64,000 bases of DNA, taken from assembly GCF_014490485.1 (NCBI RefSeq), contig NZ_JACTVA010000023.1, positions 19,112 to 83,111 on the forward strand. Direction: 5' to 3'. Position 1 is the stretch's first letter. Every line of letters starts with the position of its first letter. The notes under the pieces were generated by a model. It was not told where the DNA came from. It did no database searches and was given only the letters and a program-made list of their open reading frames with translations. Origin of the DNA: Teichococcus aerophilus (GTDB lineage Bacteria > Pseudomonadota > Alphaproteobacteria > Acetobacterales > Acetobacteraceae). Positions 4,871 through 58,201 of the stretch are shown piece after piece. Both the position numbers and the translations under genes were made by a program.

Positions 4871-5107
4871 AAGGCCGGGGAAGGAATTCCCCGGGCCCCT
4901 TCTTTTTCGAGTTATTCTGGTGTGGCCGTCGAATCGATGGCCTTGAGGGACGGCTGGGTGCGCCGGAGGTCCTAGACCTCCGGCGAATGACGGTTCAGCC
5001 CTGTTGGACCATTTCAAATATCATCAAAGCGCCCGCTCTCAGTCCTGCAGCGCCACGCCAAACTTGCAGAAAAAAGAAGGGGTCCGGGGAATACTTTCCC
5101 CGGCCTT
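4871..5107. repeat. Paired-terminator element, copy A (core type)
   Basis: A 237-bp element between convergent genes. The left end has hairpin CCGGGGAA...TTCCCCGG then CCCCTTCTTTTT; the right end is its inverse (AAAAAAGAAGGGG then the hairpin), giving inverted terminal repeats of about 45 bp that start AAGGCCGGGG. The centre holds a perfect 11-bp-arm hairpin CGCCGGAGGTC-CTA-GACCTCCGGCG (4961-4985). Each end resembles an intrinsic terminator facing inward, for the SBP gene on the plus strand and the M81 gene on the minus strand. Copies B (29211) and C (50621) share the whole core. No transposase gene or target duplication is visible. Confidence 0.85.
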
Positions 5108-5139
5108 TACCCCTCCCACCCCGCGAGCATCGGCCCGCG

Positions 5140-6636
5140 TCAGGCCGTGAACTCCGCCGGCCCGCCATACGGGTAGTAGTCGCCCAGCCGGAGGTTCTCG
5201 TAGCGCAGCCCATCCAGTCGCACCGTGCCCAGGAAGGGCTCGTCCGGCTCCACCAGCAGGATGGTTGGCGCGAAGCCGCTGTCGTCGAAACCGCGGCGGA
5301 AATGCACGCGGGACTTGATGGCAATGACATCGAACTCATCGGGCGTGAAGCCGAGTGCCCAGAGCTCGGAAGTCTCGATGATCTGCGCCAGGTAGGGACT
5401 GAGCACCAGGATGTTGCCGTCACCGAAGCGGATGCAGGCCCAGCTCTGCCCGCCGCCCATGGCGCGCGCGGTGGTGCTGGGCACGATGGCGTGCACGGTG
5501 CCGGTGATGCGTACCGGCGCGCCGGCGGATTCATCGGCCAGGCCGCCAATCTCCATGTCGAAGGCATCGCCCGGCTGGGCGCCTTGCGCCACCAGGGCTT
5601 CCAGCGCCTTCGGGTCCGCCACGGTGCAGACCAGCGTGCGGCGCAGCTTCTGCTCCAGGATCTCGCGCAGCAGCCAGGTGGCGAAGCCGGACCGGTCGCT
5701 ATGGTCGGCCAGGACGACGGGCGTACGTCCCTCCTCCACCGCCTGGCGGGCCAGCGCCACCCCGGCACCGATGCGGTGGATCTGCGCCGCGCCAAGCAGC
5801 TCCGCGCGACGGCGCCAGATGGTCATGGCCATGTCGCTGGCGACGGCCTCGGCCAGCTCCGGCTTGCCGTTGGTCAGCACCTGCACGGCCATGCCGGCAT
5901 CGGGCACGTCGCTCCAGGGAAAGCCGAAATACACGTTCACGAACAGGTCGGGCTCCCGCGCCTCCCAGGTCAGCGCGCGCTGGATCAGGTCGGACCAGGG
6001 CGAAGCGCCGATCCATTGCAGCACGGTGGGGGAGATGACGGGCACCTTGCGCGTGACATGCGCCGGCTTGAAGTCACCGCGGATGGTGCGCACCAGCATG
6101 CGCGCGGCGCGCTGGCCTTGCAGGTGCATGTCGTAATGCGGGTAGTACTTCACCGCGAAGGCCATGTCGGCGTGGCGGAGGAACTCTTCGTCCTCATTGC
6201 CATGCGGGTCGAAGGTGGCGGCGATGGGAATGCCGGTCCCAACGACGTCCCGCACGCGCCGGGCGATGTCGGCTTCCGGGCGCATCACGCCGCGCACCGC
6301 CATGGCGCCGTGTAACGCAAGATAGATGCCGTCGAACGGCCCTTCCCGCCGCAGCCCTTCCAGCATGGTGCCGAGCAGGGTCTCGTACGCCTCCTGCGTT
6401 ACCCAGCCGGAACCGGAGCCGGTCTTGGGCCAGAGCGGCGACTCGATGCCGACGAGTTCGACGCCGTCGAATTCCCGCGCCACCTGCACGAAGCCGCCAA
6501 TATAGCCCTTGGGGTCGCTGGCCAGCAGGGCCTCGCCAGCGGCAGGCGAGCCAGGATAACGGAAGTCCTCGAGCGTCGTGTCGTAGGACAGGAACGTCAC
6601 CGTCTCGTGCATGAATTGCAGTACCGCGATCCGCAT
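5140..6636 (-). CDS. M81 family metallopeptidase (MlrC-like)
   Basis: A 498-residue protein of the MlrC family, named after microcystinase C, which hydrolyses small linear peptides; most members have unknown natural substrates. The family N-terminus is clear (MRIAVLQFMHETVTF). Likely metal ligands are in DPHGN (about residue 143) and YYPHYD (about 166), and the C-terminal MlrC domain contains ADHSDRSG and KSRVHFRRGF. The frame is open for 24 more codons upstream, but the ATG at 6636 has GAGGGAG five bases ahead and gives the conserved N-terminus. It stands alone, with a repeat element at each end. The family is firm and the substrate unknown. Confidence 0.87.
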   Translation of the reverse strand: MRIAVLQFMHETVTFLSYDTTLEDFRYPGSPAAGEALLASDPKGYIGGFVQVAREFDGVELVGIESPLWPKTGSGSGWVTQEAYETLLGTMLEGLRREGPFDGIYLALHGAMAVRGVMRPEADIARRVRDVVGTGIPIAATFDPHGNEDEEFLRHADMAFAVKYYPHYDMHLQGQRAARMLVRTIRGDFKPAHVTRKVPVISPTVLQWIGASPWSDLIQRALTWEAREPDLFVNVYFGFPWSDVPDAGMAVQVLTNGKPELAEAVASDMAMTIWRRRAELLGAAQIHRIGAGVALARQAVEEGRTPVVLADHSDRSGFATWLLREILEQKLRRTLVCTVADPKALEALVAQGAQPGDAFDMEIGGLADESAGAPVRITGTVHAIVPSTTARAMGGGQSWACIRFGDGNILVLSPYLAQIIETSELWALGFTPDEFDVIAIKSRVHFRRGFDDSGFAPTILLVEPDEPFLGTVRLDGLRYENLRLGDYYPYGGPAEFTA

Positions 6637-6726
6637 CACTACTCCCTCGTGCCGCTGCGAGGCGTGAGCATAGACCCGCGGTAGGGCTACGGCGACCCGG
6701 TGTGGCATTCTTTGGAGCGGCGGAGG

Positions 6727-7040
6727 AAGGCCGGGGAAGGAATTCCCCGGACCCCATCTTTTTTCTACGAGTTAGGGTTTGGGTGGGGCGAGTAAGGCGG
6801 CGGCTGAGCGATGGTCAGCGTAAAGCGGGTTCGCTGCTACGGAGGTTTGAGGCCTCACCGGCCCTGGCCCGACGTCCGGCCAAGCGAAGCTCCGTCGAAG
6901 CCGATAAAGGATATCGAACAAGCCAGGAGTTTTGCGCACGTCGCAAAACCCAGAGGCGAGCCAACAGTGGAACCTCGCCGCAACCGGCAGGAGCCAGAAC
7001 GAAAAGATGCCAGGAGGAACCGTTCCCTCCTGGCAGCCTT
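6727..7040. repeat. Paired-terminator element, copy D (divergent)
   Basis: A 314-bp element between two minus-strand genes. The left end is a good match (AAGGCCGGGGAAGGAATTCC, then ACCCCATCTTTTTT). The right end keeps the fold but not the sequence: AGATGCCAGGAGGAA-CCG-TTCCCTCCTGGCAGCCTT forms the same size of hairpin with other bases and ends 45 bases after the stop codon of the OYE gene. The interior lacks the A/B/C core. The 449-base gap here holds nothing else I can identify. Confidence 0.65.
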
Positions 7041-7085
7041 GCCGTCAACCGCCGTCAGGCAGGAACAAAAGCCCCGCCCCAGGCT

Positions 7086-8186
<1,101 letters not shown>

Positions 8187-8291
8187 GCGATATCCTGGTA
8201 GCGAAAATGGGGAGGCCGATTTCTAGATCAGCCGTTATAAAAATGGGTAAGGGCTATCGCCAAGCCTGTCAAGAATTCTATATTGTCTGGT

Positions 8292-8915
8292 ATGGAATGT
8301 TCGCCCCCCCGCCGTGGCCGCCCGCCCAGCTTCGATCGGGAGACCGCCCTGCACCGCGCCATGGAGGTATTTTGGGCCGTCGGCTACGACGCCGCGACGC
8401 TATCCCAGCTGAAGGAAGCCATGGGCGGCCTGTGCTCGCCCAGCCTCTACGCCGCCTTCGGCTCCAAGGAGCAATTGTTCCGGGAGGCGCTGGACCTCTA
8501 CCAGGGCAGTGTCTGCCGCTGGGCCTCGGTGGCGTTGGCGAACGAAGATACGCGGGAGGCGATTGCCGGCCTGCTGCGGCAAGCCGCCTTGCAGTACAGC
8601 ATGCCGGACCAGCCCCGCGGCTGCATGCTGGACCTGGCCACCTTCAACTTCGCCCCCGCCAGCGCGCCGATCCGGGACCTGCTGCGCGAGCGGCGCCATC
8701 TGGGCGAGGCCGCGCTGCGCGCCAGGCTGGAACTCGGCATCACCCGGGGTCACCTGCCCCAGGGCACCGGCACGGCGGCGATGGCCGGCTTCTACCGCAC
8801 CGTCCTGGTCGGCCTCTCCATCCAGGCGCAGGACGGCGCGTCACGGGAACGGCTGCTGGCCATCGCCGACGGAGCGATGTTCGCCTGGGACGGCTGGCTG
8901 CGCGCCGCCGCCTGA
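8292..8915 (+). CDS. TetR family transcriptional regulator
   Basis: A 207-residue repressor with an N-terminal TetR helix-turn-helix (RGRPPSFDRETALHRAMEVF, then the recognition segment PSLYAAFGSKEQLF at about residues 40-55) and a C-terminal ligand domain with PRGCMLDLATF. A TTG three codons earlier (8283) could also start it; neither has a clear ribosome site, so the message may be leaderless or weakly translated. Divergent placement next to the OYE gene implies that it controls that gene and itself, probably released by a reactive electrophile, as for NemR. A second TetR at 49054 shares the PSLYAAFG recognition helix but sits in another context. Confidence 0.87.
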   Translation: MECSPPRRGRPPSFDRETALHRAMEVFWAVGYDAATLSQLKEAMGGLCSPSLYAAFGSKEQLFREALDLYQGSVCRWASVALANEDTREAIAGLLRQAALQYSMPDQPRGCMLDLATFNFAPASAPIRDLLRERRHLGEAALRARLELGITRGHLPQGTGTAAMAGFYRTVLVGLSIQAQDGASRERLLAIADGAMFAWDGWLRAAA

Positions 8916-9000
8916 GCGCGCGACACGTCCGGTTCACCACGGCTTGTGCCCTACGCAGCAAAGTCGTTTCCTGCCCCGTAGGACAGGAAGGAATCGGACC

Positions 9001-9990
9001 ATGGGAACACCCGGGCTTACACGGCGCGCCGCACTGCGCCTCGGCGCGCTGGCGCTGCCCGGCGCCGCCTGGGCCCCGCGGGCCTCGGCGCAGTCCTGGC
9101 CCAACCGGCCCGTGCGCATCGTGGTTCCCTATGCCGCCGGCGGCGCCACGGACACCATGGCCCGCATGGTGGCGGAACGGCTGACGCGCCGCCTTGGGCA
9201 GAATGTTATCGTCGAGAACCGCGCGGGCGCGGGCGGTGCCATCGGCGCCCAGGCCGTGGTGCAGGCGGAGCGCGACGGGCACACGCTGCTATTCTCCGGC
9301 GGCTCCCTGTTCGCCGCGGTACCGCTGATGCAGCGCCTGTCCTTCGATCCGGCGAAGGACCTGCAAGGCGTCAGCATCGTCGGCGTCAACGGCGTTGTCA
9401 TGGTCGCGTCGCCCGGCTTTGGCCCGAACAGCCCGGCCGAGGTCATCGCCTGGGCCAAGGCCAATCCAGGCAAGCTCAATTGCGCGGCGGCGGGCAACGG
9501 TACCTCCAGCCACATCGCAGGCGTCATTTTCCAGGAACGCGCTGGGCTGGACATGGTGATCGTGCCCTATGCCGGTGCCGCGGCGGCGAACTCGGATGTC
9601 ATCGCCGGGCGGGTGCATATCCACTTCGGCTCGGTGGCCGACCTGCTGCCCTATGCCGGAACCGGCTCCATGAAGCTGCTGGCCATCACCAGCCGGGAAC
9701 GCATCCCGCAGGCACCGGACCTGCCGGTGATGACCGACACGATCCCCGGCCTGGTCTACGAAGCCTGGAATGGGCTGATCGCCCCCAGCGGCGTGCCGGC
9801 GCCGGTCATCGCACTGCTCTCCCGCCACGTGATGGAGATCGCGCGGGAGCCGGATTTCGTGCAGCGCCTCGGCCTGCTCGGCATCCAGTCTACCGGCAGC
9901 ACGGTGCAGCAGGTGGAGGAGATGCTGGCCTATGAAAGGCCGCTCTACGCCGCCGCAATCCGTGCGGCCGGCCTGGGCTTCGCGCCCTGA
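9001..9990 (+). CDS. Bug/TctC-type tripartite tricarboxylate transporter SBP
   Basis: A 329-residue periplasmic protein of the Bug family. It has a Tat-like signal (LTRRAALRLGALALPGAAWAPRASA), then WPNRPVRIVVPYAAGGATDTMAR, the family ligand loop, followed by VIVENRAGAGGAIGAQAV. AGGAAGGA precedes the ATG at 9001. Bug proteins bind carboxylates or aromatic acids for TctAB permeases, and large orphan expansions are typical of some beta- and alphaproteobacteria. No TctA or TctB is present here. The gene ends against a convergent peptide-SBP gene with a strong shared hairpin between them. The family is certain, the ligand unknown. Confidence 0.92.
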   Translation: MGTPGLTRRAALRLGALALPGAAWAPRASAQSWPNRPVRIVVPYAAGGATDTMARMVAERLTRRLGQNVIVENRAGAGGAIGAQAVVQAERDGHTLLFSGGSLFAAVPLMQRLSFDPAKDLQGVSIVGVNGVVMVASPGFGPNSPAEVIAWAKANPGKLNCAAAGNGTSSHIAGVIFQERAGLDMVIVPYAGAAAANSDVIAGRVHIHFGSVADLLPYAGTGSMKLLAITSRERIPQAPDLPVMTDTIPGLVYEAWNGLIAPSGVPAPVIALLSRHVMEIAREPDFVQRLGLLGIQSTGSTVQQVEEMLAYERPLYAAAIRAAGLGFAP

Positions 9991-9995
9991 TCCTC

Positions 9996-10027
9996 GCGCA
10001 CCGGGCCGCAGCAACGGCCCGGTGCGC
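9996..10027. terminator. Bidirectional hairpin between convergent genes
   Basis: A perfect 13-bp stem (GCGCACCGGGCCG / CGGCCCGGTGCGC) with loop CAGCAA lies in the 44 bases between the Bug gene and the convergent peptide-SBP gene. There is no T-tract, but the stability and position fit a shared terminator. Confidence 0.6.
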
Positions 10028-10034
10028 AGGACCC

Positions 10035-11633
10035 TCAGGTCATCTTCATATTCCAGAAGACGATCAGCTGGTGCGCCACCACGTCCTTCACGCTGTCCCG
10101 GTGCGCGGAGACGACCTTGTAGGAACCGAGTGGAATGGCGAAGACATCGTCATAGGCCAGGCGCTGCATCTGCTCGACCAGCTGCATCTGCTTGCCCTGG
10201 TCCGGCTCCAGCGCAAAGGCGTCGCGCAGCTTCTCCATCTCGGCGCTTTCGGCCCAGCCGACATAGCCACGCCGGCCGCGCCCATCGACGTTGAGGTTGA
10301 TGATGGGGCTCATCAGGTCCAGGTCGCTCCAGATACCCCAGGCGATGCTCCAGCCGCCTTCGGCGATCGGCGCCGGGCGGGCGCGGCGGGCCAGCAGGCT
10401 GTTCCAGTCCATGCTGTCCACCTGCACGTTCATGCCGATGCTCTTCAATAGCTGCTCCGTCACCGGCGCCAGCGCGCTGCCCGAGGCAAGGTCGGCCGGA
10501 TGCAGGATCACCACCTTCTCGCCGTTATAGCCGCCTTCCTTCAGAAGCTGGCGCGCACGGTCGAGATTCTGCCCGGCGGGCGCGCCGACATCGGTGGCGT
10601 AGGGGGAGGCGCAGGTGAAGAAGGCCTTGCAGGGCTGGGTTAGGCTGTCATCGCCGACCTGCGCCGCCAGGTAGTCCGGCTGGCTGACCGCATTCAGCAC
10701 GGCCTGGCGGACCAGCTTGTTGTCGAACGGCGCATTCAGCCAGTTCAGCCGCATCAGCAGCGAGTTGCCGATGCCGCGCGGCCGCAGCACCACGCGCCGG
10801 TCGCGCTTAAGCAGTTCCATCATCTCGGCGGAGACATTCTCCATCACCTGGATCTCGCCGGTCTGCAGGGCGCTGGCGGCCGTCTGCACGTCCGAGATCT
10901 CCAGCCATTCCAGCCGGTCGAAATGCACCACCTTACCGCCGGCCAGGCCGCTGGCGGGTTCCTGCCGCGGCACGTAGCCCTCGAACTTCTCGTACACCAC
11001 ACGGTCGCCGGAACGGTACTCGCCTGCAATGAAGCGGAACGGGCCGGAGCCAACCACTTCGGTGATGCGCTGGTCCTCTGGGATCTGCACCAGCCGCGCC
11101 GGCAGGATGAACGGCACCGGGCCGCCCGGCTTGCCCAGCGTCTCCAGCACCAGCCCGTAGGGATGCTTCAACACCAGGCGGAAGCTCTGCGCGTCCACCG
11201 CCTCCAGCGTCTGGGTGGCGTTCATCAGCCGGGTGCCCATCAGGTCCCGCTTCCACCACCGCGTCAGGGAGGCAACGCAATCGGCGGCGGTGACCGGCGC
11301 GCCATCGTGGAACACCAGCCCCGGGCGCAGGCGGAACGTGTAGGTCAGCTTGTCGTCGGAGAGCGTCCAGTCCCGCACCATCTGCGGCTGCGGCCGCATC
11401 TGGTCATCCATGGCGAACAGCGTGTCGTAGACCAGGTAGCCATGGTTGCGGGTGATGTAGGCGGTGGTGGCGTAGGGGTCCAGCACGCCCAGCGTCGCAT
11501 GCATCACCGCCTTCAGCGTGCGCTTCTGGCCCGTACCCTGTGCCTGGGCGCGCGGCAGCGGCGCCACGGCCGCCGTCGCCATCCCGGCCAGGGTGGTCTG
11601 CATGATGCCGCGTCGTGTGCTGAGCAAAGTCAT
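10035..11633 (-). CDS. Peptide/nickel-type ABC SBP (family 5), orphan
   Basis: A 532-residue DppA/OppA-type binding protein. The signal region is STRRGIMQTTLAGMATAAVAPLPRAQAQ, with a twin arginine. Typical segments are TRNHGYLVYDTLFAMD, LRPGLVFHDGAPVTAADCVASL, VVGSGPFRF and a FWN near the C-terminus. It lies 46 bases downstream of the gamma-glutamyltransferase gene on the same strand and is likely co-transcribed, so a gamma-glutamyl or peptide ligand is possible. GGAGAACAGG precedes the ATG at 11633. It belongs to a local subfamily with the proteins at 22944 and 30846 (all share the RNH...YD.LF motif and a terminal FWN); none has a permease gene beside it. Confidence 0.9.
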   Translation of the reverse strand: MTLLSTRRGIMQTTLAGMATAAVAPLPRAQAQGTGQKRTLKAVMHATLGVLDPYATTAYITRNHGYLVYDTLFAMDDQMRPQPQMVRDWTLSDDKLTYTFRLRPGLVFHDGAPVTAADCVASLTRWWKRDLMGTRLMNATQTLEAVDAQSFRLVLKHPYGLVLETLGKPGGPVPFILPARLVQIPEDQRITEVVGSGPFRFIAGEYRSGDRVVYEKFEGYVPRQEPASGLAGGKVVHFDRLEWLEISDVQTAASALQTGEIQVMENVSAEMMELLKRDRRVVLRPRGIGNSLLMRLNWLNAPFDNKLVRQAVLNAVSQPDYLAAQVGDDSLTQPCKAFFTCASPYATDVGAPAGQNLDRARQLLKEGGYNGEKVVILHPADLASGSALAPVTEQLLKSIGMNVQVDSMDWNSLLARRARPAPIAEGGWSIAWGIWSDLDLMSPIINLNVDGRGRRGYVGWAESAEMEKLRDAFALEPDQGKQMQLVEQMQRLAYDDVFAIPLGSYKVVSAHRDSVKDVVAHQLIVFWNMKMT

Positions 11634-11679
11634 GGTCCTGTTCTCCGGGATGTTGGGACGTTCGGGTAGGCAGTCGCAG

Positions 11680-13389: not shown

Positions 13390-13525
13390 GCGCGCATCCT
13401 GCATCCGGGGCTGCACGAGTATTCATGCGCTCAGCTGGATCGGTCCAATACGCACTTCGCGGTATTTCGATCATTTGGACGTCTAGGTTGGGGAGCGGTT
13501 CGCTCTGGCGACGAGGACAGAAGAG

Positions 13526-13891
13526 AAGGCCGGGGAAAGAATTCCCCCCATCTTTCTTTTACGAGTTTTATGTTGGGCTTCGTTGAACGGGCGATCTGTG
13601 AAGATAAGGCGGAATACTCAAGATATTGTCAATAAATATACAATATTTTTGAAATATATCATATGTAAATATCTATCGGTCAGGAGGAATCCGATTATAT
13701 TTAACAATAATATTAAATATTATCATGACGATTACTTATCGCGCCAGCCCTGGCAGTACAGCCGGCATTCGGCAACATCAAGGACAGCTTCAGCGGCAGG
13801 CAGCCGCCTCCCCGGCACCAACCTCGCCAGTTCAAGCCCACCCAGACTCGAAGAAAAAAGATGGGGTCCGGGGAATTCCTTCCCCGGCCGT
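13526..13891. repeat. Paired-terminator element, copy E (AT-rich interior)
   Basis: A 366-bp element. The left end AAGGCCGGGGAAAGAATTCC lacks a few bases before the CATCTTTCTTTT tract; the right end AAAAAAGATGGGGTCCGGGG plus hairpin is intact and lies 48 bases after the stop of the LysR gene. In place of the A/B/C core it carries an AT-rich segment (see 13608-13735). The gap of about 550 bases between ggt and LysR holds only this element. Confidence 0.75.
13608..13735. other. AT-rich island inside element E
   Basis: About 125 bases of strongly AT-rich DNA in an otherwise very GC-rich window. It contains two dyads: ATATTGT-N10-ACAATAT (13623-13646) and the near-perfect palindrome ATAATATT-A-AATATTAT (13707-13723). 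An open frame through it (13583-13903) has atypical codons and runs into the repeat end, so it is not called a gene. Foreign origin, or a bendable protein-binding site, are both possible. Confidence 0.65.
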
Positions 13892-13939
13892 CCCGCACAT
13901 TGAAGCTTCAGCCGGCGGACCGGGCCGCCTGCGCCGAGC

Positions 13940-14869: not shown

Positions 14870-14906
14870 CGTGTCGATCCAGAACTCCAGCTTATTGAGA
14901 ATGGCC

Positions 14907-14929
14907 GCAAGGCATATTGGACTGCTTGC
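14907..14929. promoter_or_regulatory. LysR-type dyad in the LysR/bisC intergenic region
   Basis: An inverted repeat GCAAG-N13-CTTGC, the size and spacing of a LysR recognition site (T-N11-A class), lies midway between the divergent LysR and bisC starts. It is probably the binding site of the neighbouring regulator. Confidence 0.45.
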
Positions 14930-14966
14930 ATGCCCGGCTGCAATCTCCATGGCCGGAGGATCTCGC

Positions 14967-17273: not shown

Positions 17274-17276
17274 GCG

Positions 17277-18494: not shown

Positions 18495-18504
18495 GGAGCC
18501 AGCC

Positions 18505-29210: not shown

Positions 29211-29454
29211 AAGGCCGGGGAAGGAATTCCCCGGACCCCTTCTTTTCTTTTTTCGAGTTTTGGTCATGGCTGCTGAATGGATGGTCCCTGAGAGACGGCA
29301 GGGTGCGCAGGAGGTCTAGGACCTCCGGCGACTGACGGTTAAGCCCTCGCGGCTCATTTTTAATATCATCAAGCAGCGTCCGCTCTCAGTCCTGAGGCGC
29401 AACGCCAAACTTGCAGAAAAAAGAAGGGGCCTGGGGAATTCATTCCCCAGCCTT
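29211..29454. repeat. Paired-terminator element, copy B (core type)
   Basis: A 244-bp element between convergent genes, with about 45-bp inverted ends as in copy A and the same core, including the central GGAGGTCTAGGACCTCC hairpin and the stretch CGTCCGCTCTCAGTCCTGAG. Its left end starts ten bases after the stop of the plus-strand gene; its right end stops 56 bases before the pobA stop codon. Confidence 0.87.
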
Positions 29455-41740: not shown

Positions 41741-41770
41741 AACACGCCGGGGAAGCCCACAAAGGGCTTG

Positions 41771-43709: not shown

Positions 43710-43738
43710 GCCGCCTGCCAGACAAGGACCCGAAGCGG

Positions 43739-47355: not shown

Positions 47356-47358
47356 CCC

Positions 47359-47796: not shown

Positions 47797-47809
47797 AAGG
47801 ACCAGACCG

Positions 47810-48976: not shown

Positions 48977-49017
48977 CGTGCGCCCGCCCCCTCGACATCG
49001 GGGCGGGCCGCACATAC

Positions 49018-49031
49018 ATACTGAGTGGTAT
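49018..49031. promoter_or_regulatory. Short dyad in the TetR promoter
   Basis: ATAC-TGAGTG-GTAT followed by the AT-rich TTATAAC (possible -10) in front of the TetR gene. It is a candidate operator for autoregulation; the arms are only four bases. Confidence 0.3.
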
Positions 49032-49053
49032 TTATAACACGATTGCCACCGAC

Positions 49054-49638: not shown

Positions 49639-49657
49639 CGGCCAGGCTAGCGCCGCC

Positions 49658-50464: not shown

Positions 50465-50620
50465 CGCCCGGTTCCGTAGAATGTTGCCATGGCCTGGTTC
50501 CTCCTCAATTCGCCCTCTTACGCTTGGCGATGTTCCTGCGGGCATTCCATCGCGAAACGGCGCTGGCGTCGAGGGGGCTGGCGGCTTGCCTGCTGAGCTT
50601 TTCCGGGATGGAAGCGAAGG

Positions 50621-50863
50621 AAGGCCGGGGAAGGAATTCCCCGGACCCCTCCTTTTACTTTTCGAGTTTTGCGGCTGTGGATGTTGAGGGGTTGGACCTG
50701 AAGGACGGCTGGGTGCGCCGGAGGTCCTAGACCTCCGGCGACTGACGGTTCAGCCCTTGCGCCCCATATTTGAAATCGAAGCGGCGTCCGCTCTCAGTCC
50801 AGAAGCACCACACCAAACTCGCAGAAAAAAAGAAGGGGTCTGGGGAATTCATTCCCCAGCCTT
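50621..50863. repeat. Paired-terminator element, copy C (core type)
   Basis: A 243-bp element with the same ends and core as copies A and B (GGCTGGGTGCGCCGGAGGTC, then the central hairpin, then GTCCGCTCTCAGTCC). It lies between two minus-strand genes, so here only its right end would serve as a terminator, 49 bases after the epimerase stop. Its left end sits upstream of the AroE-like gene. Apart from this element, the gap 50491-50912 shows nothing else. Confidence 0.87.
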
Positions 50864-50912
50864 CCCTTCCCTCCATCGACCACGAAACAGAGCGGATACA
50901 GCACGCCGGCAC

Positions 50913-51824
50913 TCACCCTTGCCCGGAAACGAGCAACGCTTCCCGATAATGATTCACCGTCCGGGCCAGGCCATCCCGCAGCGAGGTATGCGGCAGTAGC
51001 CCCAGCACCGGCGTCGGGTCGTGCGCGGCGATGTGGGCGGCCACTGGCAGGCCGCCGCCCGCGGCGCTGATGCGCGCACTGGGGACCAGCGCCTCGATCT
51101 CCGCGATGATCCGCGGCACAGAGACTACTTCGCCCCGCAGGTTGAACACATGCGCGCCGCTGACCGGGCGCGTGGCGGCCGATGCGAAGGCGGCGGCGAC
51201 GTCATCGACGAAGATCATGTCGGTCTCGCCGGTGAAGGGAATGGTGTAGGCCTCGCCTTCCAGCGCCTTGCGGCAGGCAATGGTGGGCCCGGCGGAGCCG
51301 CCGACCTCCCGCCCCGGGCCGTAGATCACCAGCGGGCGGAAGCCAACGCTGCCGATCTGCTCATCTTGCCAGTAAGCGCGGGCGCTGCCTTCGCAGGCCA
51401 GCTTGAAGGCGCCGTAGAGGGTGGTGGGCAGCGGGAATTCGCCGTCACTCGGGCCGAACACGCCGGCGCTGCTGGCATAGGCCAGGCTGCGGATGCCGTG
51501 GCGCTTTGCCGCCGCGAAGATGTTGAGGGTACCGATCAGGTTCACCTGCGCCCCCAGCACCGGGTTGGCCTGGCAGGCGGGCGTCAGCATCGCCGCCAGA
51601 TGCGCGATGCCGCCGCAGCCCGCAACCGCGGCCTCCACATCGGCGGCGGAGGCGATGTCCCCGCTCTGCCATTCCAGCGTATCGGCGGCATCGCCGATGA
51701 TGGACCGTACCAGGGAGCGGTCGGTACTGCGGTCGAACACCCGCACCGTATGCCCCTCCGCCAGCAGCCGCCGCGCCAGCCAGGCGCCGAGAAAGCCCGC
51801 GCCGCCCGTGACCAGAACCTTCAT
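50913..51824 (-). CDS. NAD-dependent epimerase/dehydratase family protein
   Basis: A 303-residue extended short-chain dehydrogenase. The cofactor loop is MKVLVTGGAGFLGAWLARRLL at the N-terminus, SGDI follows strand three, the catalytic residues are Ser in YASSAGVFG and Tyr/Lys in LYGAFKLA (about 134-138), and FRPLVIYGPGREVG is the substrate-side loop. It is short for a UDP-sugar epimerase; related proteins act on various sugar or uronate substrates. A purine-rich GGGGGGAA precedes the ATG. It is divergent from the SBP operon at 52003, so it may be controlled with that operon. Confidence 0.88.
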   Translation of the reverse strand: MKVLVTGGAGFLGAWLARRLLAEGHTVRVFDRSTDRSLVRSIIGDAADTLEWQSGDIASAADVEAAVAGCGGIAHLAAMLTPACQANPVLGAQVNLIGTLNIFAAAKRHGIRSLAYASSAGVFGPSDGEFPLPTTLYGAFKLACEGSARAYWQDEQIGSVGFRPLVIYGPGREVGGSAGPTIACRKALEGEAYTIPFTGETDMIFVDDVAAAFASAATRPVSGAHVFNLRGEVVSVPRIIAEIEALVPSARISAAGGGLPVAAHIAAHDPTPVLGLLPHTSLRDGLARTVNHYREALLVSGQG

Positions 51825-52002
51825 GGTTTCATTCCCCCCTGAGCCGTGATGCTGGCTTATCCTGGAACCATTGCGGTGATTCGACAAACGGGGTGCCGCA
51901 CGATGCATTTTTGCTGTTGCGCCGGGAAGGTTACGGTTCTGGAATAGCCCTACCAGGGGCGCGCGCTGCGCGGACCCGGTCAATAAAGAGAAACTCAAAG
52001 GG

Positions 52003-53196
52003 ATGGACATGCAGGAATTCGCAATAGGCCGCCGCCATGTGCTGGCCGGGCTCTCAGGGCTGGCCGCCACGGCCACCGGGGCGCGGGCGCAGGACCTGCC
52101 GCTGCCCAGCCGGCCGGTGGCGCTGAACATCATGGACGTCGCCGGCAATCTCCAGCTGACGCAGGAGAGCATCACCCGCTTTGCCACGCAGAATCCGCAG
52201 CTGGTCTCTCGTGTCAGCTTCCAGCGTGCGCCGTCGCCGGAGCTGCCGAGCAAGCTGCGAGCGCAACAGGCCGCCAACCGCGTGGACATCGACCTGGTCC
52301 TGACCGGGCCGGGCGCCATGTCGGACGGCATCGGCATGGGCCTGTGGATCGATGTCTGGAAGCGCCATCCAGGCCAGTTGCCCGACGCCGCCAGCATCTA
52401 TCACGAGGGCGCGCTGATGATGCAGCGCAACTTCGGACGGGACCAGGGCGTCGCCGTGGTCTACTCACCCTCCGGCCCGATCTTCGAATACGCGCCGGCC
52501 CGCCTGCACACCGTGCCCAAGACCGCCGCCGAGCTGCTGGCCTGGGCCAAGGCCAACCCGAACCGCATGACCTATGCCCGCCCAGTGAATTCCGGACCCG
52601 GTTGGACCTTCCTGATGGGCATGCCCTACATCCTGGGCGACCGCGACCCGAAGGACCCGGTCAATGGCTGGGACAAGACCTGGGCCTGGCTGGCGGAACT
52701 CGGCCAGAACATTGACCACTATCCCGGCGGCACCGCCGCGATGATGAAGGAATTCGGCGACGGCAACCGCGACCTGATCGTCTCCACCTGCGGGTGGGAC
52801 ATCAACCCCCGCGCGCTGGGCATCGTGCCGAAGGATGCCGGCGTGTTCGTGCTGGAAGGCACGCGCTGGGTGCCGGACACGCAGTTCATGGCCATCCCCA
52901 AGGGCGTGCCGGACGACAAGGTGGCCGTGCTACTGCGGCTGATGTCCTTCCTGCTGCAGCCGGAGCAACAGGCCGCCACCTATGACCGCGGCTATTTCTA
53001 CCCCGGCCCGGCCGTGCGCGGCGCCACCCTCGCCATGGCACCGGCGGAAAGCCAGGCCGTCATCCGCGAATTCGGCCGCCCGGAATACGACCGCCTGATC
53101 GCCGAACTGCCCTTCGCCGAGCCGCTGACGCCCGACCGCCTGATCCTGGCCTTCCGCCGCTGGGATGAGCAGATCGGCGCCAAGGCCACCCGCTGA
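52003..53196 (+). CDS. Extracellular solute-binding protein (orphan SBP)
   Basis: A 397-residue periplasmic binding protein, the close paralogue of the one at 3614. The signal is Tat-like (IGRRHVLAGLSGLAATATGARA). Shared motifs include SKLRAQQAANRVDIDLVLTG, YSPSGPIFEYAPAR, NSGPGWTFLMGMPYILGDRDP, STCGWDINPRALGIVPKDA and the terminal RRWDEQIGAKA. The start is ATG 52003 or the second Met at 52009, with AAAGGG upstream. Its stop overlaps the next gene's start (TGATG), and four enzyme genes follow. No permease is present. The setting suggests a sugar, sugar-acid or amide ligand. Confidence 0.85.
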   Translation: MDMQEFAIGRRHVLAGLSGLAATATGARAQDLPLPSRPVALNIMDVAGNLQLTQESITRFATQNPQLVSRVSFQRAPSPELPSKLRAQQAANRVDIDLVLTGPGAMSDGIGMGLWIDVWKRHPGQLPDAASIYHEGALMMQRNFGRDQGVAVVYSPSGPIFEYAPARLHTVPKTAAELLAWAKANPNRMTYARPVNSGPGWTFLMGMPYILGDRDPKDPVNGWDKTWAWLAELGQNIDHYPGGTAAMMKEFGDGNRDLIVSTCGWDINPRALGIVPKDAGVFVLEGTRWVPDTQFMAIPKGVPDDKVAVLLRLMSFLLQPEQQAATYDRGYFYPGPAVRGATLAMAPAESQAVIREFGRPEYDRLIAELPFAEPLTPDRLILAFRRWDEQIGAKATR

Positions 53197-54209
53197 TGCG
53201 CTTCGCCGCCATCGGCCTCGACCACCGCCACATCTACCACATGGTGGGGGAACTCCTGGCAGCCGGCGCGCAATGCGCCGGCTATTGCCCGCAGACCTCC
53301 GACCCTCGCGTCCTGGCCGGCTTCCAGGAACGCTTCCCGCAATTGCAGGCGCGGGACCGGCAGGCTCTGCTGGATGCGGCGGATATCGACGTCATCCTCT
53401 GCGCCGCCATCCCGCGCGACCGCGCCGGCATCGCCATCGCCGCCATGCGGCGCGGCAAGGACGTGATGTGCGACAAGCCCGGCATCACCAGCCTCGAGGA
53501 TCTCGCCGCCGTCCAGGAGGTGGTGGCGGAGACGAGGCGCATCTTCTCCATCTGCTTCTCCGAGCGGTTCGTGGTGCCCTCCACCCTGGTTGCGGCCAAG
53601 CTGATCGCCGATGGCGCCATCGGCCGGGTGGTGCATACCACCGGGCTGGGGCCGCACCGGCTGAACCGCGCCATCCGCCCCGCCTGGCATTTCGATGCCG
53701 CCACCTATGGCGGCATCCTCGCCGACATCGCATCCCACCAGATCGACCAGTTCCTGTTCTTCACCGGCTCCGCGGATGCCCGTATCGTCGCCAGTTCCGC
53801 CGGCAATGTCGGCCACCCGGACCTGCCGCACTTCCAGGACCTGGGCGAGCTGACGCTGGAGAGCGCGCACGCGCGCGGCTTCGTGCGGGTCGACTGGTTC
53901 ACCGCCGACGGCCTGCCCACCTGGGGCGACGGCAGGCTGATCCTGCTGGGCACCGAGGGCACGATTGAGCTGCGCAAATACGTCGATATCGACGGCCGCC
54001 CCGGCACCGACCACCTGTTCCTGGTGAACGGCCGCGGCACCCGCCACATCGATGCCAGCACCGAGCCCCTGACGTATTTCCACGCCTTCGCCGCCGATGT
54101 GCGGGACCGCACCGAAACCGCCATGACCCAGCGCCACGTCTTCACCGTGACGCGCCTGGCCCTGGAAGCGCAGCGGGATGCCCGCCCGCCGCTTTCGCCG
54201 CAGGATTGA
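53196..54209 (+). CDS. Gfo/Idh/MocA family oxidoreductase (first)
   Basis: A 337-residue NAD(P)-dependent dehydrogenase. The N-terminal Rossmann segment begins RFAAIGLDHRHIYHMVGELL, unusual in having H-R-H-I in place of the G-x-x-x-H loop. The CDKPGITSLEDL segment holds the conserved E/D-K-P lysine, and HFDAATYGGILADIASHQIDQFLFF contains the catalytic-type D-x-x-x-H. The translation is coupled to the SBP by TGATG. The pair of Gfo/Idh/MocA enzymes implies two oxidation or epimerisation steps on a polyol or sugar acid. The substrate is unknown. Confidence 0.88.
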   Translation: MRFAAIGLDHRHIYHMVGELLAAGAQCAGYCPQTSDPRVLAGFQERFPQLQARDRQALLDAADIDVILCAAIPRDRAGIAIAAMRRGKDVMCDKPGITSLEDLAAVQEVVAETRRIFSICFSERFVVPSTLVAAKLIADGAIGRVVHTTGLGPHRLNRAIRPAWHFDAATYGGILADIASHQIDQFLFFTGSADARIVASSAGNVGHPDLPHFQDLGELTLESAHARGFVRVDWFTADGLPTWGDGRLILLGTEGTIELRKYVDIDGRPGTDHLFLVNGRGTRHIDASTEPLTYFHAFAADVRDRTETAMTQRHVFTVTRLALEAQRDARPPLSPQD

Positions 54210-54222
54210 GGATACGCCTACC

Positions 54223-55233
54223 ATGTCAAAGATCGGTGTCAGCATCATCGGGCTCGGCCCCGCCTGCCTGCCGCATGCGCGCAGCCTGCTCGACCTCGGT
54301 GATCAGGTGGAGGTCATCTGGGCCGCCACCCGGAGCCAGCAGCGCGCGGATGCCTTCGCCGCGCAGTTCCCCTTCCCCGTCACGACGGACCTGGAACAGG
54401 CCATCCACGACCCACGTGTCGGCGCCGTGCTGGTGCTGACGCCGCCGGCCGCGCATCTGGAAACCGCCGAGCGCTGCCTTGCCGCCGGCCGCCACATCCT
54501 GGTGGAAAAGCCGCTGGAACTGACCGTGGCGCGCGGCGAGCAACTGGTCGCCGCCGGGCACCGCGCCGGCCGGCAGGTCGGCGTCATGCTGCAGCACCGC
54601 TTCCGTCCCGCCAGCCTGCGGCTGCGGGCGTTGCTGGAGGCCGGTGCGCTGGGCCCGATCGAGGCGGCCTCGATGACCGTGCCGTGGTGGCGGCCGCAAA
54701 GCTATTACGACGAGCCCGGGCGCGGCACCATGGCGCGGGATGGCGGCGGCGTGCTGCTGACTCAAGCCATCCACACGCTGGACCTGTTCCGCTCCCTGGT
54801 CGGCATCTCCGCCATCACCGCTGCCGAAACCCGCATCACGAGCCTGCATCGGATGGAAACCGAGGATTTCGCCTGCGCGATGCTGCGCACCGCGAACGGC
54901 GCCCCCGGCCTGCTGATGACCACCACCGCCTTCCCGCCCGGGCATCCGGAGCGGATCGAGATCATCGGCGGCAAAGGCGCCGCCACCCTGGCCGGCGGCG
55001 GCCTGGAAGTCGCCTACGCGAATGGGGAACACGAGGTCCTGGCAGCCGAAGGCTCCACCGGCAGCGGCGCCAACATCATGGACTTCCCGCACGACGCCCA
55101 TCGCGAGCTGCTGCGGAACTTCTTCGCCGCCTGCGAGACCGGGCAGGGCCTGATCGTCACCGCCGAGGAAGCACTGGCGTCGCAGAAGGTGGTGGATGCC
55201 ATCCTGGCCAAGGCGCGCGAAAGCCGCGGCTGA
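54223..55233 (+). CDS. Gfo/Idh/MocA family oxidoreductase (second)
   Basis: A 336-residue dehydrogenase with VSIIGLGPACLPHARSLLDL as the cofactor loop, ILVEKPLELTVARGEQLV holding the E-K-P motif, and DGGGVLLTQAIHTLDLFRSLVG with the catalytic histidine. It differs clearly from the preceding member and follows it by 13 bases. TTGAGGAT precedes ATG 54223. Together with the first oxidoreductase, the amidohydrolase and the isomerase-like protein it forms one operon with the SBP. Confidence 0.9.
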   Translation: MSKIGVSIIGLGPACLPHARSLLDLGDQVEVIWAATRSQQRADAFAAQFPFPVTTDLEQAIHDPRVGAVLVLTPPAAHLETAERCLAAGRHILVEKPLELTVARGEQLVAAGHRAGRQVGVMLQHRFRPASLRLRALLEAGALGPIEAASMTVPWWRPQSYYDEPGRGTMARDGGGVLLTQAIHTLDLFRSLVGISAITAAETRITSLHRMETEDFACAMLRTANGAPGLLMTTTAFPPGHPERIEIIGGKGAATLAGGGLEVAYANGEHEVLAAEGSTGSGANIMDFPHDAHRELLRNFFAACETGQGLIVTAEEALASQKVVDAILAKARESRG

Positions 55234-55326
55234 CGGCACGATCCGCGTCGCGCGGCCTTGCCAGCGCCGCCGGACAGTGCCTTGCTGCTGCCGGCTTCAC
55301 TGTTGAAACAGCGTCAAGGGGAACCG

Positions 55327-56760
55327 ATGCCTCGTACCGTGATCCGCGCTTCGCACATCATCGCCTACCAGGATGGCGGCCACCGCCACCTGAAAGACGG
55401 CGTGGTGGTCTATGAGGGCGATACCATCGTGCATGTCGGCCAGGATTATGATGGGCCGTCCGACCATGTCATCGACGCCAAGGACAAGGTCGTCACGCCG
55501 GGCTTCATCAACACCCACGCCCACCTGTCCGAGTCGCCGCTCGACAAGAGCTTCGTGGAGGATCGCGGCCCACGGCAATTCTACCTCTCCGGCCTGTTCG
55601 AATTCCTCTCGGCACGCGACGGCGCCATCACCGATGCCGCACGCCGTGCCAGCATCGCCTATTCCATCCCGGAGCTGCTGCGCACCGGCACCACGACCAT
55701 CATGGAAATCGGTCGCTATGGTGACGTGGTGGCCGAGCACGCCGCGCGCAGCGGCATCCGTGCCTATATCGGCCAGGGCTACCGCTCCGGCCGCTGGTAC
55801 ACCGCCAATGGCCGTACGGTCGATTACGAGTGGGACGAGGATGACGGCGTCGGCGCCTTCAATGCCGCCGTCGACTTCATCGAACGCGTCGACGGGCAGG
55901 AGAACGGCCGCATCAAGGGCTTCCTGACGCCGATGCAGATCGACACCTGCTCGGAAGCCCTGCTGCGCCGCTCCGCCGACGCGGCGCGGGACATGAAGGT
56001 GCCGCTGGCGCTGCACGTCTCCCAGTCCGTGCCCGAGTTCCACGAGATGACGCGCCGCAACGGCTGCACGCCGATCGAGTGGCTGGAGAAAATCGACTTC
56101 CTCTCCGAGCGCTGCATCCTCGGCCACTGCATCATTCCCGGTGAGAGCAGCTGGGCCAACTACCAGGCCGACGATATCGGCATCCTCGCCGATACCGGCG
56201 CCAACGTCGCCCATGCGGTCTGGGTCTTCGCCCGGCGCGGCATCGCCATGGAGAGCTTCGCGCGGTACCAGAAGCGGGGCGTCAACATGACCATCGCGAC
56301 CGATACCTGCCCGCAAAGCATGATCGAGGCGATGCGCTGGACCTCTGTCGTCTCCAAGATCGTCGATCGGCAGACCCAGGTCGCCACGGCAGCGGATGTG
56401 TTCAACGCCGCCACGCTGAACGGCGCCAAGGCGCTGGGCCGCGAGGACCTCGGCCGCATCGCCGCCGGCGCCAAGGCGGACCTGCTGATCTGGAGCAGCG
56501 ACAGCCTGTTCATGACGCCGCTGCGCGACCCCATCCGCAACCTGGTGTTCTCCGCCACGGCCGAGGACCTGCAGACCTCGATCATCGACGGCCGGGTCGT
56601 GATGGAGGATCGCGTGGTCCCCGGCTACGACCCGGTGGAGCTGGGCCGCGCCGTGCAGGCGGGCGCCCAGGCCATGTGGGATGGCATGAAGGCCCGCGAC
56701 TGGGCCGGGCGGGATATCGAGCAGCTTTCGCCCTCCAGCTTCCCTGCCTTCCGCGCCTGA
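55327..56760 (+). CDS. Amidohydrolase (chlorohydrolase/cytosine deaminase-like)
   Basis: A 477-residue metal-dependent hydrolase of the AtzA/TrzA/guanine deaminase group. It has an N-terminal beta-sandwich part, then GFINTHAHLSESPLDKSF with the metal HxH, LALHVSQSVPEFHEM, LGHCIIPGESS (His), and ATDTCPQSMIEAM (Asp). The C-terminal ADLLIWSSDS is the end of the composite sandwich domain. AAGGGGAA precedes the ATG at 55327. It is in line with the Gfo/Idh/MocA pair, so deamination or ring opening of an imported cyclic amide or N-heterocycle is possible. Confidence 0.88.
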   Translation: MPRTVIRASHIIAYQDGGHRHLKDGVVVYEGDTIVHVGQDYDGPSDHVIDAKDKVVTPGFINTHAHLSESPLDKSFVEDRGPRQFYLSGLFEFLSARDGAITDAARRASIAYSIPELLRTGTTTIMEIGRYGDVVAEHAARSGIRAYIGQGYRSGRWYTANGRTVDYEWDEDDGVGAFNAAVDFIERVDGQENGRIKGFLTPMQIDTCSEALLRRSADAARDMKVPLALHVSQSVPEFHEMTRRNGCTPIEWLEKIDFLSERCILGHCIIPGESSWANYQADDIGILADTGANVAHAVWVFARRGIAMESFARYQKRGVNMTIATDTCPQSMIEAMRWTSVVSKIVDRQTQVATAADVFNAATLNGAKALGREDLGRIAAGAKADLLIWSSDSLFMTPLRDPIRNLVFSATAEDLQTSIIDGRVVMEDRVVPGYDPVELGRAVQAGAQAMWDGMKARDWAGRDIEQLSPSSFPAFRA

Positions 56761-56848
56761 GGGCAACACAGCCTGGCCCCGGCAACGGGGCCAGGCCACG
56801 ACATCCAGACGCCCAACCCATGGGCAGCCCGAGGAAGGAACCCGCGCC

Positions 56849-57694
56849 ATGGCCATCGCCCCTGATCCCACGGCCCTGGGGCTGGACCGGCTCTCGATGA
56901 ACCTCGGCACGCTGGGGCCGGGCCGCCCGGCGGACGAGGTGCTGGATGCCTGCGCCCGGGCCGGCATCCGAACCATCACCCCATGGCGCTACAGCTACGA
57001 GGCCGCCGGCGTCAGCGCCTTCGCCCGCTCCATGCGGCGGCACGGCATGGTGGCCAGCTCCGTCTGCCGCATCGCCCGGCTGGGCGGCGCCGATACCCCG
57101 CCCGCCTGGCGCAACGCCATCGAGGAAGGCCGCGCGGTGCTGGATGAAGCCGCCGAGCTCGGTGCCAGCTCCGTCACCGTCATCGGCGGCGGCATGGCCG
57201 ATGGCAGCCGCAGCCTGGACGACGCCCGCGCCCGCCTGCGGGACGGCGTGCAGCAACTGGCCGGGCACGCCCGCAGCGTCGGCGTCGCCCTGGCGCTGGA
57301 GCCGCTGCACCCGATGGTGGCCGCCGACCGCGGCTGCATCAGCACCCTCGCCCAGGCGCTGGAACTGGCCGAGCAGGCTGGCGACGACATCGGCATCATG
57401 TTCGACTGCTACAACAGCTGGTGGGACCCGGCCCTGCCCCGCTCCATCCCCGCCGCCGCCAGCCGCCTGCTGGGGTTTCAGGTAGCGGACTGGCTGGTAC
57501 CGACCCAGGACCTGGTGCTGGATCGCGGCCTGATGGGCGATGGCGTCATCGACTTTCGCCACCTGCGCGGCATGGCGGAAGCCGCCGGCTATGCCGGCTG
57601 CATCGAAGTGGAAATTCTCTCCAGCCGCTTCTGGCAACAGGAGACGGAAAGCATCGTGGCCCAGGTCGTCGAGCGCTTCACCGGCTGCTGCTAA
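56849..57694 (+). CDS. Sugar phosphate isomerase/epimerase family protein
   Basis: A 281-residue TIM-barrel protein of the xylose isomerase-like AP2 family. Landmarks are CARAGIRTITPWRYSYEAAG near strand one, SVTVIGGGMADGSRS, LALEPLHPMVAADRGCI with a metal-type glutamate, GIMFDCYNSWWDP and the final CIEVEILSSRFWQQE, whose glutamates would bind the divalent metal. AGGAAGGA precedes the ATG. It closes the SBP, oxidoreductase, amidohydrolase operon, 88 bases after the amidohydrolase. It probably isomerises or epimerises a keto intermediate. Repeat element F follows 21 bases later. Confidence 0.87.
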   Translation: MAIAPDPTALGLDRLSMNLGTLGPGRPADEVLDACARAGIRTITPWRYSYEAAGVSAFARSMRRHGMVASSVCRIARLGGADTPPAWRNAIEEGRAVLDEAAELGASSVTVIGGGMADGSRSLDDARARLRDGVQQLAGHARSVGVALALEPLHPMVAADRGCISTLAQALELAEQAGDDIGIMFDCYNSWWDPALPRSIPAAASRLLGFQVADWLVPTQDLVLDRGLMGDGVIDFRHLRGMAEAAGYAGCIEVEILSSRFWQQETESIVAQVVERFTGCC

Positions 57695-57715
57695 GGAGGC
57701 TAGCTCTGGGGAAGC

Positions 57716-58201
57716 AAGGCCGGGGAAAGAATTCCCCGGACCCCATCTTCTTTTTTCGAGTTTTGGCGGTATGGCTTCTGCGTGTGTGTGTATCTGCTTG
57801 GTGCAGGGTAACGGGGCGGCTTTGCTCGTGGCGGTTTGGAACGTGGTTGCTTGAGGTAGAATCACCACAAACCCTGAATGATGCAGGTAAAGATAGAAGG
57901 AAGGATGGTGCATGAATGAACATGACCGCATCGTTCCCCAGCATCAGCTTGAATGGCCCCATTTGGAAACCATCGTGGCGGGCGTGATTGGCGCGCGTTG
58001 AAACGGCGCTGCACGTGAGCAACGCGATCGAATATTATCGAAGAATCGGGCGCGTGTTTGCACCTGGCTTACTTCAAAGCAGGCGCGCAGCACCTGGCTA
58101 AACGACAGGTCGTCGAACCCTGCCCCAGGCGCGCACCCCCACCCCACGCCAAACTCGCAGAAAAAAGATGGGGGCCTGAGGGAATTCCTTCCCCCAGCCT
58201 T
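57716..58201. repeat. Paired-terminator element, copy F (long)
   Basis: A 486-bp stretch between convergent genes with the same left end (AAGGCCGGGGAAAGAATTCC, ACCCCATCTTCTTTTTT) and an inverse right end (GCAGAAAAAAGATGGGGGCC plus hairpin). Its interior lacks the A/B/C core and its central hairpin and shows no gene. The right end lies 14 bases past the dinB stop, the left end 21 bases past the isomerase stop. Confidence 0.75.

What the first reader, a model, noticed from the sequence alone, without database searches (positions are those of the whole stretch)
4871..58201. Six dispersed elements whose inverted ends are inward-facing terminators
Elements at 4871-5107, 6727-7040, 13526-13891, 29211-29454, 50621-50863 and 57716-58201 are each bounded by about 45-bp inverted repeats. 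Each end consists of a hairpin (CCGGGGAA...TTCCCCGG) followed on the inner side by CCCCTTCTTTTTT, so both ends look like intrinsic terminators pointing into the element. The right end lies 14-56 bp behind the stop codon of a minus-strand gene in all six cases, and three copies sit between convergent genes with the left end 10-69 bp behind a plus-strand stop. The elements could be MITE-like repeats that spread because they land harmlessly at gene ends, or a paired-terminator system the genome uses as its main 3'-end module. No transposase gene or target duplication is visible here.
Basis: seen in the sequence. Interest (0 to 1): 0.75.

Follow-up and report, generated by a model that had tools for sequence, protein, structure and literature searches.

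The report
Paired triplex-hairpin repeats behind genes
Six copies of a repeat scattered through this bacterial genome sit just behind genes, and its two facing ends typically carry a hairpin followed by a tract that matches it as a third strand, so the ends are predicted to fold into triple helices and would likely stop transcription there.

Summary
The repeat is real. In 853 kb of this Roseomonas-like genome, 225 ends form 101 inward-facing pairs; 47 pairs lie between convergent genes (15.5 expected), and stop-side ends lie a median 32 bp behind the stop. About 900 ends are estimated genome-wide. Hairpin arms covary. In a 200-kb sample of a congener without the element, convergent gaps are 20 bp and terminator-like signals at convergent ends are at chance level. 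One nested copy and three empty sites in relatives suggest spread; no target duplication (main class) or transposase partner was found.

The new result: the tract between hairpin and T-run is the parallel, not antiparallel, complement of the purine arm. Letter-perfect: 168 of 343 hairpins against 0. If an arm A may face T or A: 286 against 27, and for interrupted arms 58 of 71 against 0. That is the signature of an intrastrand triple helix, as in BoxC/PIT repeats. The motif also occurs in genomes of other classes, in outward-facing pairs.

Triplex folding, termination and transposition are inferred. The 10-nt hairpin-to-T-run gap is longer than usual for an intrinsic terminator.

The parts
4871..5107 (+). 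element 1 (237 bp, class A core) between convergent genes
4877..4902 (+). worked example of the three strands in one end: purine arm GGGGAA 4877-4882, loop GGAA 4883-4886, pyrimidine arm TTCCCC 4887-4892, linker GGG 4893-4895, third tract CCCCTT 4896-4901 (parallel complement of the purine arm), then C and the T-run
   Evidence: sequence; rule tested
4962..4984 (.). core palindrome GCCGGAGGTCCTAGACCTCCGGC; in another copy the corresponding place is the site of a nested insertion
5059..5107 (-). right end of element 1, 32 bp behind the minus-strand stop at 5140
6727..7040 (+). element 2; left end 6727-6773 belongs to the family, right end is a different hairpin
13526..13891 (+). element 3; left hairpin damaged; AT-rich spacer with no other match in the 853-kb sample
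29211..29454 (+). element 4 (244 bp, class A core) between convergent genes
50621..50863 (+). element 5 (243 bp, class A core) between two minus-strand genes; the orthologous genes overlap by 4 bp in G006 (my gene calls)
57716..58201 (+). element 6 (486 bp, spacer with no other match in the sample) between convergent genes; the orthologous gap in G006 is 3 bp (my gene calls)

Best explanation
The six features are copies of a dispersed repeat with two inverted ends, typically a purine/pyrimidine hairpin followed by a tract that is the parallel complement of the purine arm and then a T-run; the repeat likely spread as a MITE-like mobile unit, and its ends, predicted to fold into intrastrand triple helices, would act as transcription-stopping 3' ends for the genes beside them. 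Shown by sequence: copy number, inward pairing, arm covariation, the three-strand relation, placement behind stops, one nested copy and three empty sites. Inferred: mobility, triple-helix folding, termination. The course I think most likely: a unit arrives, is kept mainly just behind stop codons, and there supplies a hairpin, clamped by its third strand, that stops RNA polymerase and separates convergent transcription units. Which strand and which nucleic acid carries the triplex is open. The A/T freedom of the third tract favours the purine motif on the DNA strand opposite the mRNA; the pyrimidine motif in the RNA remains possible.
For: 225 ends and 101 inward pairs in 853 kb, 0 close outward pairs, 0 ends inside called genes, 0 called genes inside pairs. 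Convergent gaps 47 observed against 15.5 expected, divergent 9 against 26.2; 74% of stop-side ends of pairs lie under 60 bp from the stop against 31% simulated. Gene ends bearing an element end carry a hairpin + T signal in 84 of 85 (convergent) and 39 of 40 (same-strand) cases, shuffled 36% and 20%; without one, 29 of 121 and 36 of 148, shuffled 9% and 16%. G008, a congener with no element in 200 kb: 4 of 54 convergent ends (shuffled 6%) and a 20-bp median gap; G007, with elements: 112 bp. Arm covariation: 94.7% of cells paired, 55 double-change cells against 17.0 shuffled, all four Watson-Crick pairs at one position. Third tract: the parallel reading is better in 56 of 60 ends chosen by arm, 0 of 2000 permutations reach the observed value; letter-perfect in 168 of 343 hairpins against 0 antiparallel; with A allowed to face T or A, 286 against 27, and for interrupted arms 58 of 71 against 0. 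Mobility: a class A copy is split at its core palindrome by a class B copy, the halves overlapping by 7 model positions that contain CCTGG; the three window sites that could be compared are empty in a relative.
Against: No transcript or folding data. Hairpin base to T-run is a median 10 nt, longer than a usual intrinsic terminator (recalled: 0-3 nt). Start-side ends keep hairpin and third tract as well as stop-side ends do (53 of 71 and 47 of 53, against 108 of 153 and 91 of 108), so conservation does not depend on a gene to terminate. In loci of other classes the 11 close pairs seen all face outward. BoxC/PIT elements were reported to have no terminator activity (PMC4666352, introduction). 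No Y1 transposase match in the genome, no flanking duplication. 57 of 343 hairpins lack a perfect third tract even with A allowed to face T or A, and two arm types have none. In the arm test two of five measures do not exceed the shuffles: pairs with a double change 3 against 2.2, further pair types 12 against 12.8. The copies are related, so counts of ends are not independent.
Confidence: 0.55

Rival explanations
1. A plain MITE-like repeat: the ends are transposase-recognised hairpins and any termination is incidental. Placement behind stops only reflects where insertion does no harm.
For: Start-side ends as conserved as stop-side ends; the paired unit is the rule, 101 pairs and 23 unpaired ends; nested insertion; empty orthologous sites.
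Against: No transposase partner among what was searched (Y1 family, class B box); no target duplication at the sampled pairs. Tolerance alone does not obviously predict a median 4 bp from the stop in G007 (27 stop-side ends), nor the third tract, for which a DNA-binding transposase has no obvious need (inference).
Confidence: 0.22
2. A DNA-level triplex or cruciform barrier at gene ends (supercoil sink, replication or transcription block) rather than an RNA terminator.
For: Where an arm A is met by A in the third tract (49 of 198 positions), only the purine motif on the opposite DNA strand gives standard triads; the purine motif is said not to form in RNA (PMC4666352, introduction). In loci of other classes the close pairs face outward yet still sit between gene ends. 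Third tract equally kept at start-side ends.
Against: The T-run is conserved and, in this genus, lies beyond the hairpin as seen from the stop. [quoted passage not shown]
Confidence: 0.18
3. REPIN-type elements moved by a RAYT (Y1 transposase).
For: Two inverted palindromes at intergenic 3' ends, hundreds of copies.
Against: No Y1_Tnp match in the own genome; one marginal match in 17 genomes of the genus; the foot is AAGG, not the GTAG/GGAG-type tag (tag recalled).
Confidence: 0.04

Closest known systems
BoxC / PIT / TM intrastrand triplex repeats (PMC4666352; outline with abstract, found passages, sections 3 (part 1 of 2), 15 and 16 read)
   Different: Different sequence. Third strand on the other side of the hairpin: class I on one strand and class III on the other by that paper's definitions, while the TM pattern is class II. 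Nearly always paired here, attached to a T-run, set at stop codons, with many covarying arm types. The TM was reported without terminator activity and without link to mobile elements.
MITEs
   Same: Short, inverted ends, no called gene inside, many copies, a nested copy.
   Different: No target duplication at the sampled pairs, no parent transposon found, hairpin third tract.
REPIN / BIME (REP doublets; papers seen as search listing only)
   Same: Two inverted palindromes with a spacer, intergenic, near gene 3' ends.
   Different: No RAYT, different foot, T-runs and third tracts.
Convergent intrinsic terminators
   Same: GC hairpin then T-run behind stop codons.
   Different: About 10 nt between hairpin and T-run, filled by linker and third tract; the two ends go together as a unit that also lies at start sides.

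Membership tests
Intrastrand triplex repeat (class I/III) | homopurine arm, homopyrimidine arm and a third segment matching by triplex rules, arms 6-15 nt, loops 1-6 nt | tested here: met
   168 of 343 letter-perfect, 286 of 343 with A facing T or A; loop 4, linker medians by arm type 1-5, 3 for 14 of 17 types
Intrastrand triplex repeat (class I/III) | folds as a triple helix | not testable with these tools
   needs CD, NMR or chemical probing
BoxC/PIT (TM of E. coli) | consensus CCCTCNCCC-N3-6-GGGNGAGGG-N3-GGGNGAGGG | tested here: not met
   arm types compared by eye with the consensus in PMC4666352 section 16: different sequence and segment order
MITE | inverted repeat ends, short, no gene inside | tested here: met
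   0 called genes inside 101 pairs
MITE | target site duplication | tested here: not met
   0 of 100 pairs with a flanking repeat of 4 bp or more; only class B shows CCWGG at some borders
MITE | autonomous element with the same ends | tested here: inconclusive
   searches found none; only Y1_Tnp and the class B outer box were searched, other transposase families were not
REPIN | RAYT transposase in the genome | tested here: not met
   0 matches to PF01797; the control rings in 5 of 14 known genomes
Intrinsic terminator | GC-rich hairpin followed by a T-run | tested here: met
   123 of 125 element-bearing gene ends
Intrinsic terminator | T-run directly after the hairpin | tested here: not met
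   median 10 nt, n = 140 ends with intact hairpin and a T4 run
Intrinsic terminator | stops transcription | not testable with these tools
   no RNA data held

The most novel reading that the evidence does not exclude
Selection keeps an intrastrand triple helix at bacterial gene ends: across many arm sequences and more than one class of Proteobacteria the third strand changes in step with the hairpin, and a mobile repeat has spread these triplex hairpins through Roseomonas-like genomes as their main terminator-like 3'-end module.
Probability: 0.42. Interest if true: 0.92.

Novelty: new variant of a known kind. Interest (0 to 1): 0.77.

Why it matters
Whether intrastrand triplexes have a role in living bacteria has been open since BoxC/PIT elements were described. 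Here evolution itself seems to have run the test: the third tract follows the arm through some fifteen arm sequences. If right, this gives a natural, testable triplex motif with hundreds of copies per genome, a case of a repeat family bringing terminator-like 3' ends to a lineage in which an element-free relative shows few, and a ready set of compensatory variants for experiments.

Tried and rejected
Rejected or weakened: (1) Antiparallel second pairing of the C tract with the arm: 0 of 343 letter-perfect; 27 of 343 when A may face T or A, none of them among the 71 interrupted arms. My first comparison scored the two readings by unequal rules; one search corrects that. (2) RAYT/REPIN. (3) Structured RNA in the core: RNAalifold on 70 oriented copies found only the two end hairpins; Rfam had no match in the window at gathering scores. 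(4) Orientation of the core relative to genes: ++ 11 against 6, -- 9 against 6, convergent 15 against 19, no strong bias. (5) Target duplication: aligned empty sites are too diverged; flank comparison gave none. (6) An autonomous element with the class B outer box: 35 genome places against 2 in the control; 30 were read as 3-kb loci for ends and boxes only, and no box-to-box unit larger than the small elements stood out; their genes were not searched. (7) Phage or plasmid origin: no exact match in viral contigs, none in phages (one 56-bp query); plasmid matches only in Pseudoroseomonas cervicalis. (8) Long spacers as a second repeat: 13 of 17 matched only themselves in the sample; two shared a 67-bp stretch (one of these also matched another place), and two had three further matches each. 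(9) In print: searches listed no paper that describes this family in the rows shown (several searches had more hits than rows), and the end letters had 0 papers; most subscription journals are not in the library.

Limits: the 853-kb sample is enriched, holding 77 of 316 and 54 of 217 pattern hits in 15% of the genome. Genes were called by my own codon-score script; those in the distant loci by a simpler ORF choice. nhmmer gave 226 hits; 1 under 15 bits was dropped. Of 130 prepared end references, 92 were aligned. Of 87 distinct places listed, 60 were fetched; further matches of that search were not listed. Searches scored at most 150 and 39 candidates a genome, so their match numbers are not copy numbers. 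The 20 loci were chosen with a pattern that includes the third tract, so most of their ends do not test the rule.
Full report
What was checked. The six elements are present as described, with two misfit ends: the right end of 6727-7040 and the left end of 13526-13891. The window is C57:19112-83111 of a 5.66-Mb, 140-contig genome. The only plasmid record matched by the first element is of Pseudoroseomonas cervicalis, and the best named relatives of a window gene are Acetobacteraceae, many Roseomonas-like, so I take the host to be a Roseomonas-like member of that family; its own name was not given.

Census. I took 40 stretches plus the window, 852,900 bases, called genes with a codon-score script, and searched with a profile of the window's ends. 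There are 225 ends at 15 bits or more: 101 inward pairs, 23 unpaired ends, no close outward pair, none inside a called gene. 57 of 101 pairs are 235-250 bp long, range 163-755. 74 of 101 carry the recognisable class A core. The sample is enriched; scaled by whole-genome pattern counts the genome holds about 900-920 ends, some 450 elements. In the sample the pairs make up 27,253 bp, 22% of intergenic DNA.

Placement. Pairs occupy 47 of 103 convergent gaps, 24 of 229 ++, 20 of 272 -- and 9 of 100 divergent gaps. If dropped on intergenic DNA at random, 15.5, 25.9, 32.4 and 26.2 would be expected. Stop-side ends (153) lie a median 32 bp from the stop, start-side ends (71) a median 123 bp from the start. 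An end lies within 100 bp behind 85 of 206 convergent gene ends, 40 of 188 same-strand ends with a gap of 100 bp or more, and 0 of 313 with a shorter gap. In sister species G007 (200 kb) the 27 stop-side ends lie a median 4 bp from the stop.

Terminator-like signals. A simple hairpin-plus-T detector fires at 84 of 85 convergent and 39 of 40 same-strand gene ends with an element end (shuffled 36% and 20%), and at 29 of 121 and 36 of 148 without (shuffled 9% and 16%). So 123 of 188 such signals come from this family. In 200 kb of the congener G008, which has no match to the end model, the detector fires at 4 of 54 convergent ends (shuffled 6%) and 6 of 37 same-strand ends (shuffled 5%), and the median convergent gap is 20 bp. 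In 200 kb of G059, another genus with 11 ends, the gap is 15 bp; in G007, 112 bp. Inference: the family brought most terminator-like ends into a lineage with very short convergent gaps.

Hairpin covariation. On 92 ends of G000, G006 and G007 the 8-bp stem forms standard pairs in 94.7% of cells (shuffled 87.7), with 55 double-change cells (shuffled 17.0) and a covariation score of 0.208 (shuffled 0.082). One position shows CG 35, GC 25, UA 11 and AU 9. Two of the five measures do not exceed the shuffles (pairs with a double change 3 against 2.2; further pair types 12 against 12.8). The end model finds matches in 16 of 17 genomes of the genus and in 25 of 150 of the family, of which 10 have a single match.

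Third tract. The hairpin is followed by a short linker and a pyrimidine tract before the T-run. Its C-run follows the arm's G-run in length. Taking hairpins by arm and loop alone, 290 local hairpins match the parallel complement at 0.896 on average and the antiparallel at 0.648 (best offset); 0 of 300 permutations reach either value, since both share base composition. I then searched the genus for interrupted arms, requiring only a TTTT within 30 nt, and fetched 60 of the 87 listed places. Examples: GGGGGAGAA with CCCCCTCTT, GGGGGAAGAA with CCCCCATCAT, GGAGGGAGAA with CCTCCCTCAT, GGGAGGAAGAA with CCCTCCATCAT. At the best parallel offset G faces C in 321 of 334 positions; A faces T in 140 and A in 49 of 198. 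The parallel reading is better in 56 of 60, equal in 2 and worse in 2; 48 of 60 are perfect if A may face T or A; 0 of 2000 permutations reach the observed value. Over 343 local hairpins of 17 arm types, which include most of those places, 168 are letter-perfect in parallel and 0 antiparallel. With A allowed to face T or A under both readings, 286 are perfect in parallel, in 15 types, and 27 antiparallel. Of the 71 with interrupted arms (11 types), 58 are perfect in parallel and 0 antiparallel. The copies are related, so ends are not independent; the number of arm types is the safer measure.

Reading of the third tract. A parallel complement is what a pyrimidine-motif triple helix needs on this strand; on the opposite strand it is the purine motif (antiparallel third strand, G.G-C, A.A-T or T.A-T; rules from PMC4666352 section 3). 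The A-faces-A positions are standard only in the purine motif on the opposite strand, which that paper says does not form in RNA. So DNA is favoured on triads, RNA on the T-run. I know of no mutational process that makes a parallel complement (inference).

Mobility. Three sites of the window could be compared with a relative: the gap holding element 1 is 39 bp in AT-5844, that of element 6 is 3 bp in G006, and the genes around element 5 overlap in G006 (my gene calls). The 37-kb G006 stretch, much of which aligns with window 29.8-61.5 kb, has no end, while that part of the window has two elements. A class A copy on C97 is split at its core palindrome by a class B copy: its two halves cover model positions 107-245 and 1-113, the overlap holding CCTGG; the two border copies read ATTGG and CCAGG. 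A second nested case (L201) is less clear, as both outer halves are right halves. Class B copies carry an outer inverted box (GATCGACATTCGG, often preceded by CCWGG) 25-31 bp outside the hairpin foot; 35 genome places against 2 in the control at up to 3 mismatches. No flanking duplication at the sampled pairs, no Y1 transposase. Ends are better conserved than the core (mean pairwise identity 0.85 against 0.66), and start-side ends are as good as stop-side ends.

Beyond the family. The exact three-part pattern occurs in 11 of 398 phylum genomes: the own genome and 10 outside the class, with no control hit. In 20 loci of six of these 32 ends were found. The 11 close pairs all face outward. The T-run side meets a stop in 24 of 31 ends with a neighbour (median 23 bp, range -1 to 995); the hairpin side also meets a stop in 17 of 31, as expected between convergent genes. 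Of seven arms there that the pattern did not select (6 GGGGGA, 1 GGAGGA), four fit the rule. So the motif is older or more widely moved than the Roseomonas-like elements, and its direction relative to genes is not fixed. That weakens a purely directional terminator reading and strengthens the triplex one.

Verdict. A real, abundant repeat with a three-strand signature not found in the papers listed by my searches; likely a mobile unit used as a 3'-end module. Folding, termination and movement all remain to be shown.

Noticed in passing
G250, G222, G215, G230, G274, G204 (L322-L341): The same three-part motif in genomes of other classes, the close pairs facing outward, often between convergent genes, with recurring flanks (TCAAAAYCC before, CAATA/CAATG after the T-run).
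   Followed up: partly
L226 (G000 C97:26409-26913), L201: Class B copy inside a class A copy at the core palindrome (L226); a less clear case in L201. CCWGG-like borders, only partly a clean duplication.
   Followed up: partly
G000 C97:121151, 124266, 64366; C24:68277; L219: Variant ends in which a palindrome like CGTAAACGTATACGTTTACG stands in place of the first part of the C tract, followed by CATC and a T-run.
   Followed up: no
window 13526-13891, 57716-58201; long copies on C97, C66, C1, C54: Most long copies have spacers not found elsewhere in the sample (13 of 17 tested); the one at 13526 is strikingly AT-rich.
   Followed up: partly
window 6727-7040: Right end is an unrelated terminator-like hairpin that keeps the AAGGC foot.
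   Followed up: no
G008 C1:1-200000 (L242-L251): A congener with no elements, 20-bp median convergent gaps and few hairpin-plus-T signals.
   Followed up: yes
G000 C13:18044-18600: A heptamer tandem array (CTTGAGC) beside an element end, partly masked.
   Followed up: no
L032: A nested hairpin sits in the linker between pyrimidine arm and third tract of a weak end.
   Followed up: no
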